This document shows positions 36,560 to 40,208 of a stretch of DNA of 41,039 bases, piece by piece. The position numbers and the translations under genes were made by a program. Under the pieces are notes generated by a model. That model did no database searches and was not told the origin of the DNA. It saw only the letters and a list, made by a program, of their open reading frames with translations. Within the stretch, counting starts at the first letter, position 1. Each line of letters opens with the position of its first letter. This DNA is from Comamonadaceae bacterium (GTDB lineage: Bacteria; Pseudomonadota; Gammaproteobacteria; Burkholderiales; Burkholderiaceae_C), in assembly GCA_947455935.1 (NCBI GenBank), contig CANGPV010000009.1, positions 1 to 41,039 on the forward strand. The letters run 5' to 3'.

Positions 36560-37339
36560 ATGAGTGAGCAATTGATTCAAGTACGAATCGAAGCTGAAAA
36601 AGTGGGCGTGATAACGCTTAATCGTCCTAAGCAATTGAATGCGCTGAACAGCGAGTTGATGATTGAATTGGGTGCCGCACTCAAAGCGTTTGATGCTGAT
36701 CCCCAAATCGGTTGCATTATCTTGACTGGCAATGAAAAAGCCTTCGCTGCAGGTGCTGACATAGGTGCCATGGCCACCTATTCTTACGCCGATGTTTACA
36801 AAGCGGACTACATTACCCGAGATTGGGAAACCCTTCGCAGTATTCGAAAGCCTGTGATTGCTGCTGTGGCTGGTTTTGCTTTGGGTGGTGGTTGTGAAGT
36901 TGCCATGATGTGCGACATCATCATTGCAGCAGACAACGCCCGTTTTGGACAACCAGAAATTAAATTGGGCATCATCCCCGGCGCTGGGGGTACACAACGA
37001 CTGCCACGGGCCATCGGTAAAGCCAAGGCTATGGATTTGGTTTTAACAGGCCGAATGATGAATGCCGAGGAAGCTGAACGTGCTGGACTGGTCAGCCGCG
37101 TTGTGGCACTTGACGCATTGATGAACGAAGCACTGGCAGCCGCGCTGATCATTTGTGACTACTCTCAAATAGCTGTGATGACTGCTAAGGAATCCATTAA
37201 CAGGGCTTTTGAAAGCGGTCTTTCTGATGGCGTGATGTTCGAGCGTCGCATGTTTCACGCGCTGTTTGCCACAGAAGATCAAAAAGAAGGCATGGATGCT
37301 TTCGTCAACAAACGAAAAGCTGTATTTCAAAACCACTAA
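36560..37339 (+). CDS. paaF: Enoyl-CoA hydratase
   Basis: [76 protein letters not shown]. Confidence 0.88.
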
Positions 37340-38374: not shown

Positions 38375-38720
38375 GTTCACCAGACGCTAGCAACGCCTTC
38401 ACATCCTGTGCGCCACCAAGCAATTTTCCATCCAAAAATACCATGGGGAACGTGGGCCATCCGGTCCACATTTTGAGTGCAAGGCGACGTCGCCACTGGC
38501 TGAAATAGCTGCCATATTCCAAATAGACATAGGCAACGCCAGCTTTTTCTAAGCACTGCTTAACAGTTTTAACAACGGGATTTTGCGTCATACCTATCAC
38601 TACCACTCGATGGACTTGGATGGCTGACTGCACTTCTGCAATGATCTCGTGTTGAAAGTTGTTGATTTGATCCTCAATTGCCGAATGAATATGAGAATGA
38701 GCCAAGACAGGACGTGTCAT
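38349..38720 (-). CDS. Glutaredoxin-fold protein lacking the CxxC/CGFS active site
   Basis: Grx-like VVVIGMTQNPVVKTVKQCLEKAGVAYVYLEYGSYFSQWRRRLALKMWTGWPTFPMVFLDGKLLGGAQDV. Confidence 0.75.
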   Translation of the reverse strand: MTRPVLAHSHIHSAIEDQINNFQHEIIAEVQSAIQVHRVVVIGMTQNPVVKTVKQCLEKAGVAYVYLEYGSYFSQWRRRLALKMWTGWPTFPMVFLDGKLLGGAQDVKALLASGELKAMLASK

Positions 38721-38793
38721 GCATGCACCTTTAGGAATGAAATATCGTTTAAAGAAACTGGTACAGTTTCACTGTCTTTCATTATGCATTCCT

Positions 38794-39138
38794 ATGAGAT
38801 ACGGACTATTTTTTATTTTGATTATTCAATCTTGGTGTAGTTCAGCCCAAATAGTGTCTCCCCCTTTGAGTTGTGGAAAACACTTTTTAGGCTTTGAATT
38901 TGACGTCCACTTTCAAAGCGAAAGAGTTGAATTGAACTTCAAGGATGAGAAACATATTTTGCCTTTCAACAGATCTTGGGTGACGACCCAAGGGGAGCAC
39001 TGGAGCGATTACACCGATGGTCACCTTATCGTTGCTAGCAGCTATCCTGACGAGCCTTATGTGGCCATCAGTCTAAAAAATCAGAAAAATTCAATGGCTT
39101 CTTGCGATGTGGTTCAAAAACCTGCACCGAACAAGTAG
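38794..39138 (+). CDS. Small secreted hypothetical protein
   Basis: Signal peptide MRYGLFFILIIQSWCSSA; two mature cysteines. Start at 38794 preferred over 38719. Confidence 0.55.
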   Translation: MRYGLFFILIIQSWCSSAQIVSPPLSCGKHFLGFEFDVHFQSERVELNFKDEKHILPFNRSWVTTQGEHWSDYTDGHLIVASSYPDEPYVAISLKNQKNSMASCDVVQKPAPNK

Positions 39139-39167: not shown

Positions 39168-39428
39168 TCATTCCTCTTCAGATTTTTTTGAATCCGGTTT
39201 TTTAATTTGATAGGCGTTGTTTCGTTGAATTTTCACGACCATGAAATAGCAGTCACGTTTTTTCTCACCGTTTTTAATCATGTCACAAAAAGTTGCACTC
39301 CCCGCAAATGATGCCTTGCAGTAGTTCATTTCATCTGGGTTCTTTTTCAATGTGCAAGAACTCAAATCTTCAGCAAAGGACAATGAGTGTGCAACCACCA
39401 TCAGTACTAGACAACAACCGACTTTCAT
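39168..39428 (-). CDS. Small secreted protein with C-x11-C-x10-C-x11-C pattern
   Basis: Signal MKVGCCLVLMVVAHSLSFA; mature SCTLKKNPDEMNYCKASFAGSATFCDMIKNGEKKRDCY. Confidence 0.6.
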   Translation of the reverse strand: MKVGCCLVLMVVAHSLSFAEDLSSCTLKKNPDEMNYCKASFAGSATFCDMIKNGEKKRDCYFMVVKIQRNNAYQIKKPDSKKSEEE

Positions 39429-39647
39429 GACACGTCCTTGTGTGAGTTTGGTGCATATTACCTAACAATTAGAGTTCGTTATTGACGCAGGTGCATAGGA
39501 CTTGTTTGGGTTACCAGAGCGAGATTTCCGAACAAATCTTGGCAGTTACACAACTTCATTTTTATGAATATTTAAGTATTAATAAATTAATTTTTCCAGC
39601 TATATACAATTATTAAGTATGATTATTTATATTTTATTTGATAACAT

Positions 39648-39857
39648 ATGTATTTAAGTACTCTTTTTTTCATATGCATCGAATTTTATTTAAATGTTTG
39701 TGGGCATGCAATCTCAGACGGTCATGACCACTTGGATACGTCAGACGCAGAAAGTTGTTTACGGCGTGTAAGTGTTAATCTTGACATGAATTCTTCCCGT
39801 TCCACATCAATGTTTCGCAATTGTCTTATTGAGAAAGGATATCAACTTATTCAATAA
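39648..39857 (+). CDS. Tiny exported protein (69 aa), copy 1 of a tandem pair
   Basis: Hydrophobic N-terminus and tail TSDAESCLRRVSVNLDMNSSRSTSMFRNCLIEKGYQLIQ, matched 20/39 without gaps by the downstream copy. Confidence 0.55.
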   Translation: MYLSTLFFICIEFYLNVCGHAISDGHDHLDTSDAESCLRRVSVNLDMNSSRSTSMFRNCLIEKGYQLIQ

Positions 39858-39906
39858 ATATCCATCCCATTTTTTAGCCCTGTCCAGAGAGGGATATTAT
39901 TTATTG
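39852..39906. repeat. Imperfect inverted repeat between the two tandem copies
   Basis: CAATAAATATCC (39852-39863) versus reverse complement of GGATATTATTTATTG (39892-39906), i.e. CAATAAATAATATCC. Confidence 0.4.
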
Positions 39907-39933
39907 AAAAGAAATATATGGTAAATTATATAA

Positions 39934-40208
39934 ATGAAATTGATAAATAATATCTTCGTTGTTGTGTGTGTCATGCGATGTTTAATTGCATGTCAAAACG
40001 TTGAGGTTAACGCAGCACTTTACCCACAAACGGAGTCTTTGTTTAACTATCAGCCAAAAGTCATTAAGAATGGTCAATCTGTACTTGCCCTACCGACAAA
40101 GAAGATTGCATCAACCGCCTTGCTAAAGATGCAGATCTGAAATCTTCCAGATCTGCATCACAATTTCGACAATGTCTTATCGACAAGGGCTATACCCTCA
40201 TAGACTAA
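39934..40208 (+). pseudogene. Frameshifted second copy of the tiny exported (lipoprotein-like) protein
   Basis: ORF 39934-40140 supplies a lipobox-like N-terminus (MKLINNIFVVVCVMRCLIAC). The homologous tail PTDKEDCINRLAKDADLKSSRSASQFRQCLIDKGYTLID lies in the -1 frame at 40089-40208. Confidence 0.5.
40128..40159. repeat. Perfect 12-bp inverted repeat with 8-nt loop
   Basis: GATGCAGATCTG-aaatcttc-CAGATCTGCATC read directly. Confidence 0.85.

What the first reader, a model, noticed from the sequence alone, without database searches (positions are those of the whole stretch)
39648..40208. Tandem tiny exported proteins sharing a novel C-terminal module
Copy 1 ends TSDAESCLRRVSVNLDMNSSRSTSMFRNCLIEKGYQLIQ. 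The downstream copy encodes PTDKEDCINRLAKDADLKSSRSASQFRQCLIDKGYTLID: 20 of 39 positions identical without gaps, including two Cys, SSRS and FRxCLIxKGYxLI. The N-termini differ: a signal-peptide-like segment in copy 1 and a lipobox-like LIAC in copy 2. A conserved C-terminal Cys-pair module on different export signals suggests a small secreted family that is duplicating and diversifying.
Basis: seen in the sequence. Interest (0 to 1): 0.6.

Follow-up and report, generated by a model that had tools for sequence, protein, structure and literature searches.

The report
Frameshifted tandem pair of mini-lipoproteins
Two neighbouring tiny genes in a freshwater Limnohabitans bacterium are old duplicates of a small surface-lipoprotein gene; one has lost its lipid-attachment signal and the other is split by a frameshift, so this is mostly ordinary gene decay within a minor, previously unnamed lipoprotein family.

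Summary
The 39-residue repeat is real: 20/39 identical, far beyond chance, with a codon pattern of purifying selection (dN/dS about 0.26). Both halves match one family profile in the right order, so copy 2 is a full-length lipoprotein gene carrying a net one-base frameshift (recent mutation, or assembly error). Copy 1 is open but lacks a lipobox, a charged n-region and the PxVxxxG block. The module is not free-standing: eight other genomes of the genus, and three more distant Comamonadaceae/Betaproteobacteria records, encode it once each as the C-terminus of an 82-95 aa lipoprotein with no Pfam, NCBIfam, PHROG or PDB match. This family is homologous at both ends to common glycine-zipper lipoproteins, with the zipper replaced by a short loop. 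Likely product: an outer-membrane lipoprotein whose two cysteines close a helical hairpin (inferred). 'A secreted family duplicating and putting one module on different export signals' is not supported: there is one old duplication, now decaying.

The parts
39648..39857 (+). Copy 1: 69-aa ORF, hydrophobic N-terminus without lipobox, followed by the two-Cys module
   Evidence: ATG-to-stop ORF; leave-window-out family HMM matches residues 31-68 at 23.4 bits, the N-terminus only at 0.9 bits
39738..39854 (+). Module of copy 1: TSDAESCLRRVSVNLDMNSSRSTSMFRNCLIEKGYQLIQ (invariant D, C, C, L, K, G, Y, L all kept)
39934..40088 (+). N-terminal part of copy 2 in frame 1: lipoprotein signal with lipobox LIAC, then NYQPKVIKNGQSV, which matches the family's NYxPxVNLxGxAL block. 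The mechanical ORF continues out of the family frame to 40140
   Evidence: family HMM 10-11 bits, none of about 5,000 shuffles as high; 51 codons free of stops, P about 0.02
40089..40208 (+). Module of copy 2 in frame 0: PTDKEDCINRLAKDADLKSSRSASQFRQCLIDKGYTLID plus stop; no in-frame start codon
   Evidence: HMM 26.4 bits alone, 38.7 bits when read after the frame-1 part
40128..40159 (.). 15-nt near-perfect inverted repeat (93%, 2-nt spacer) inside the module of copy 2; absent from copy 1

Best explanation
This is a tandem pair of paralogous genes for a small outer-membrane lipoprotein, in a Limnohabitans genome. The ancestral protein (82-95 aa in relatives) has a type II signal peptide with a lipobox, a short PxVxxxG...Y linker, and a C-terminal helical hairpin whose helices carry the conserved cysteines of Dx3C and CLIxKGYxL. 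It is a shortened form of the glycine-zipper lipoproteins common in Burkholderiales: the zipper between the two Cys elements is replaced by about 20 residues. Inferred working: it is exported by Sec, lipidated by signal peptidase II, sorted to the outer membrane by Lol, and a Cys-Cys disulphide made in the periplasm locks the hairpin, giving a small lipid-tethered envelope protein (structural or stress role) rather than a membrane-inserted one. In this genome the pair duplicated long ago and was under purifying selection; now copy 1 has lost the lipobox and the linker, and copy 2 carries a net one-base frameshift between linker and module, so it is probably a recent pseudogene (or, less likely, an assembly error). 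Shown: homology, family architecture, frames, selection, single-copy relatives. Inferred: localisation, disulphide, role, pseudogene status.
For: Both modules match a profile built without them (23-26 bits); copy 2's two frames read in order give 38.7 bits over model positions 1-90. Eight other genomes of the genus carry one intact member each; named records are Limnohabitans sp. B9-3 and Comamonadaceae/Burkholderiales/Betaproteobacteria MAGs. The family N-half matches glycine-zipper lipoproteins by hhalign (E = 2.6e-9; mature part only, E = 4e-12). Limnohabitans zipper proteins have YRPIIDTQGVDFNRYEADLRDCQ...RNIIRRCLAGRGYRVLQ, and the zipper-less G024 member YRPAIIENSVDMNQYEKDRSDC is intermediate (BLAST E = 3e-7). 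C-terminal blocks match: 3 of 20,000 column shuffles reach the family score, 0 of 20,000 for the window copies. AlphaFold of a relative gives helices 48-74 and 76-88 at pLDDT about 90, placing Cys61 and Cys85 on opposite arms; copy 1 gives helices 31-44 and 50-62 with Cys37 and Cys59 on opposite arms at lower confidence. The window copies are sisters (100/95), dN/dS about 0.26.
Against: No reads or expression data, so a frameshift mutation and an assembly error cannot be told apart. The N-terminus of copy 1 is open for 30 codons, which AT-rich DNA gives by chance about 11% of the time, so its true start is unsure. No neighbour is conserved that would point to a function.
Confidence: 0.62

Rival explanations
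1. The frameshift in copy 2 is an assembly or sequencing artefact of the metagenome bin; in the living cell copy 2 is an intact 91-aa lipoprotein working beside copy 1.
For: Every invariant residue downstream of the frameshift is intact and the upstream half still fits the family, so the break is very recent or not real; the genome is an 85%-complete bin of 151 contigs.
Against: The other genes of this window read as long uninterrupted ORFs, so small indel errors are not common in this contig.
Confidence: 0.25
2. Two functional tiny exported proteins sharing a module on different export signals, a family that is duplicating and diversifying.
For: The modules are under purifying selection; copy 1 is an intact ORF with a hydrophobic N-terminus.
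Against: Copy 2's lipobox is in another frame from its module; copy 1 lacks a lipobox and a positive n-region; relatives carry the module behind a lipoprotein-type signal, once per genome.
Confidence: 0.08
3. Programmed ribosomal frameshifting joins the two frames of copy 2.
For: Net shift of one base with both halves conserved in family register.
Against: Inspection of the overlap shows no canonical slippery heptamer in the right frame (sequence); all relatives are encoded in one frame.
Confidence: 0.03
4. A two-peptide bacteriocin pair of the Cdz kind (tandem small exported proteins).
For: Tandem pair of small exported proteins; distant homology to zipper lipoproteins.
Against: [quoted passage not shown] none is seen near either copy, and the relatives are single genes among housekeeping genes.
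Confidence: 0.02

Closest known systems
Glycine-zipper lipoproteins of Burkholderiales (hits near Gly-zipper_YMGG PF13441 / Rick_17kDa_Anti PF05433, all below the curated cut-offs; e.g. L082, L085, L125-L129)
   Same: Lipobox, RPxVDxxG...YxxDxxxCQ block, and C-terminal RxCLxxRGYxVL element, in the same order
   Different: The glycine zipper is absent and replaced by about 20 residues; the window copies also lack the full N-terminal half in one frame
Zipper-less mini-lipoproteins of Limnohabitans and other Comamonadaceae (defined here, L071-L080 and L005)
   Same: Dx3C...RxCLIxKGYxL with all invariant residues; copy 2 also has the lipobox and the PxVxxxG block
   Different: Relatives are single copy and in one frame; copy 1 lacks lipobox and linker, copy 2 is frameshifted
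SlyB (E. coli outer-membrane lipoprotein, described as encapsulating TolC-like proteins under stress; PMC13082787 citing Janssens et al. 2024; its glycine zipper is from my own knowledge)
   Same: Functional analogy only: small outer-membrane lipoprotein
   Different: SlyB relies on a zipper that this family lacks; no sequence homology was tested

Membership tests
Zipper-less Limnohabitans/Comamonadaceae mini-lipoproteins (defined here) | C-terminal module Dx3C ... CL[IV]xKGYxL | tested here: met
   All invariant columns kept in both copies; leave-window-out HMM 23-26 bits
Zipper-less Limnohabitans/Comamonadaceae mini-lipoproteins (defined here) | Lipobox and PxVxxxG linker in the same reading frame as the module | tested here: not met
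   Copy 1 lacks both; copy 2 has both but in another frame. The copies are derived, degenerate members by descent
Glycine-zipper lipoproteins (PF13441 / PF05433 / PF13488 type) | Glycine zipper between the two Cys elements | tested here: not met
   No Pfam hit for the window copies and no zipper domain hit for the mini relatives
Glycine-zipper lipoproteins (PF13441 / PF05433 / PF13488 type) | Flanking blocks RPxVDxxG..YxxDxxxCQ and RxCLxGRGYxVL | tested here: met
   Met for the mini family: hhalign E 2.6e-9 to 4e-12 for the N block; C block 3 of 20,000 shuffles, window copies 0 of 20,000
Bacterial lipoprotein (signal peptidase II substrate) | Positive n-region, hydrophobic core, lipobox | tested here: inconclusive
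   Met by the frame-1 part of copy 2 and, strictly or loosely, by nearly all relatives; not met by copy 1; lipidation itself not testable here
Cdz two-protein bacteriocin | Glycine zippers, type I secretion system and immunity gene next to the pair | tested here: not met
   None among the window ORFs or homologue neighbourhoods read (PMC5380434)

The most novel reading that the evidence does not exclude
A lineage of lipoproteins has shed its glycine zipper and kept only the disulphide-clamped hairpin as a free-standing periplasm-facing domain; in this genome copy 1 has gone further and become a non-lipidated, soluble version, so that tethered and soluble forms of the same redox-closed hairpin once worked side by side.
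Probability: 0.1. Interest if true: 0.4.

Novelty: new variant of a known kind. Interest (0 to 1): 0.22.

Why it matters
It defines a small unnamed lipoprotein family that current libraries miss and ties it to the widespread glycine-zipper lipoproteins, giving a natural comparison (with and without zipper) for testing what the zipper and the flanking Cys pair do. It is also a caution: a motif read by eye across two frames looked like an export-signal swap but is a frameshift.

Tried and rejected
Pfam, NCBIfam, PHROGs and PDB sequence searches of the copies: nothing at meaningful E-values. Plasmid and phage tblastn with an intact relative: no match; IMG/VR scan: no relative confirmed. PHROGs on relatives: only chance-level hits. 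Foldseek of the relative's model against the PDB: best E 2.1, meaningless for a helical hairpin. Weak genus hits L006, L007, L010-L015 were read and rejected as chance or wrong frames. The short G006 hit (L027) was judged chance. DNA homology between the copies upstream of the module: no better than shuffles. An alternative frame of copy 1 (ATG 39674, MHRILFKCLWAC) carries a lipobox-like LWAC that would echo copy 2's CLIAC, but it gets no profile support (0.3 bits), so it stays a lead. Mutual exclusion of the zipper form (11 genomes) and the mini form (9) among 84 genomes is within chance (expected overlap about 1). Literature searches found no paper on this family.

Full report
Check of the observation. 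Copy 1 is an ATG ORF at 39648-39857. Copy 2's 39-residue module is at 40089-40205. They share 20 of 39 residues; shuffles reach 10 at most, and nothing else in the window exceeds 10. The genome has these two copies and no more. Differences fall 18/8/24 on codon positions 1/2/3, with dN 0.48 and dS 1.84: two protein-coding paralogues, long separated, under purifying selection.

LIAC belongs to the ORF that starts at 39934 and runs in frame 1 to 40140; the module is in frame 0, where the last upstream stop is followed by no ATG, GTG or TTG before the module. To ask whether the two frames are one gene, I built a profile from eleven relatives without the window copies. The frame-1 segment aligns to the profile's first half (MKL...LxAC...NYxPxVxxxGxxV; none of about 5,000 shuffles scored as high), the module to the second half, and the two in order give 38.7 bits against 10.6 and 26.4 apart. 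Copy 2 is therefore one ancestral gene with a net one-base frameshift between linker and module. Because every invariant residue beyond the break survives, the break is recent or an assembly error; the other genes of the window are unbroken, which makes error somewhat less likely. Copy 1 has no lipobox, no K/R at its start and no linker block.

Relatives. The window is contig C9 of a 2.1-Mb, 85%-complete bin. Profile searches found one intact member in each of eight other genomes of the genus out of 84 and nothing convincing outside the genus in a sample of 401 genomes of the wider family. A scan of named genomes gave Limnohabitans sp. B9-3 and several Comamonadaceae, Burkholderiales and Betaproteobacteria MAGs, including three more distant members; the genus name Limnohabitans for the window rests on that one named isolate being held in the same genus group (G002). 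All have the same plan: lipoprotein signal, linker, Y/FxxDx3C, short loop, [LFV][RK]xCL[IV]xKGYxL[LM]. No library has a model for them. Neighbourhoods differ and are mostly housekeeping genes.

Deeper origin. Weak hits in the order and phylum samples turned out to be glycine-zipper lipoproteins with the same two ends. Profile comparison of the N-terminal halves gives E = 2.6e-9 with the signal and 4e-12 for the mature block alone; the C-terminal block scores are reached by at most 3 of 20,000 column shuffles. Limnohabitans itself has zipper-type members in 11 genomes at E below 0.001; the five read in full show the complete layout, and the zipper-less G024 member is an intermediate. The mini family is thus a zipper-less form of this kind of lipoprotein; the direction of change (loss or gain) was not tested.

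How it probably works. A relative is predicted as two helices, 48-74 and 76-88, at pLDDT about 90, with Cys61 and Cys85 on opposite arms; copy 1 keeps the hairpin at lower confidence. The fold search gave nothing. I infer a periplasm-facing, lipid-tethered hairpin closed by a disulphide, with a structural or stress role in the envelope; SlyB is an analogy only (PMC13082787). A Cdz-type bacteriocin pair was considered and rejected (PMC5380434).

Verdict. Real homologous pair, real minor family, but the central claim of different export signals is a frame error for copy 2 and probable degeneration for copy 1. The copies form a sister pair (100/95), so this is a single old duplication. At the matching place in two related genomes the small-gene neighbour (window 39168-39428) is followed instead by a polyphosphate-kinase-like gene (named by eye), and no module copy is found in the stretches read.

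Noticed in passing
window 39168-39428 (-): 86-aa predicted exported protein with several conserved Cys (DLSSCTLKK-PDEMNYCKASFAGSATFCDMIKNGEKKRDCYF), 65-73% identical in four related genomes, no Pfam, NCBIfam or PHROG match.
   Followed up: partly
window 38719-39138 (+): 139-aa predicted exported protein, conserved next to the 86-aa gene in four related genomes (63-73% identity) and also found in a fifth, G057 (56%); no family match.
   Followed up: partly
window 40128-40159: 15-nt near-perfect inverted repeat with a 2-nt spacer inside the coding module of copy 2, absent from copy 1.
   Followed up: no
window 39638-39727 (+): Alternative frame over copy 1's N-terminus reads ...MHRILFKCLWAC, a lipobox-like end that resembles copy 2's CLIAC; it may mean copy 1 is also frameshifted, but there is no statistical support.
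   Followed up: partly
L065, L066, L069 and window 36560-37339: In three relatives the mini-lipoprotein gene lies about 0.1-2.2 kb downstream of the paaG-like enoyl-CoA hydratase gene, as in the window (2.3 kb), although the genes between differ.
   Followed up: partly
L064, L067, L079: In three genomes the mini-lipoprotein gene sits directly beside a small gene whose product resembles DUF1330 (by eye), in different orientations.
   Followed up: no
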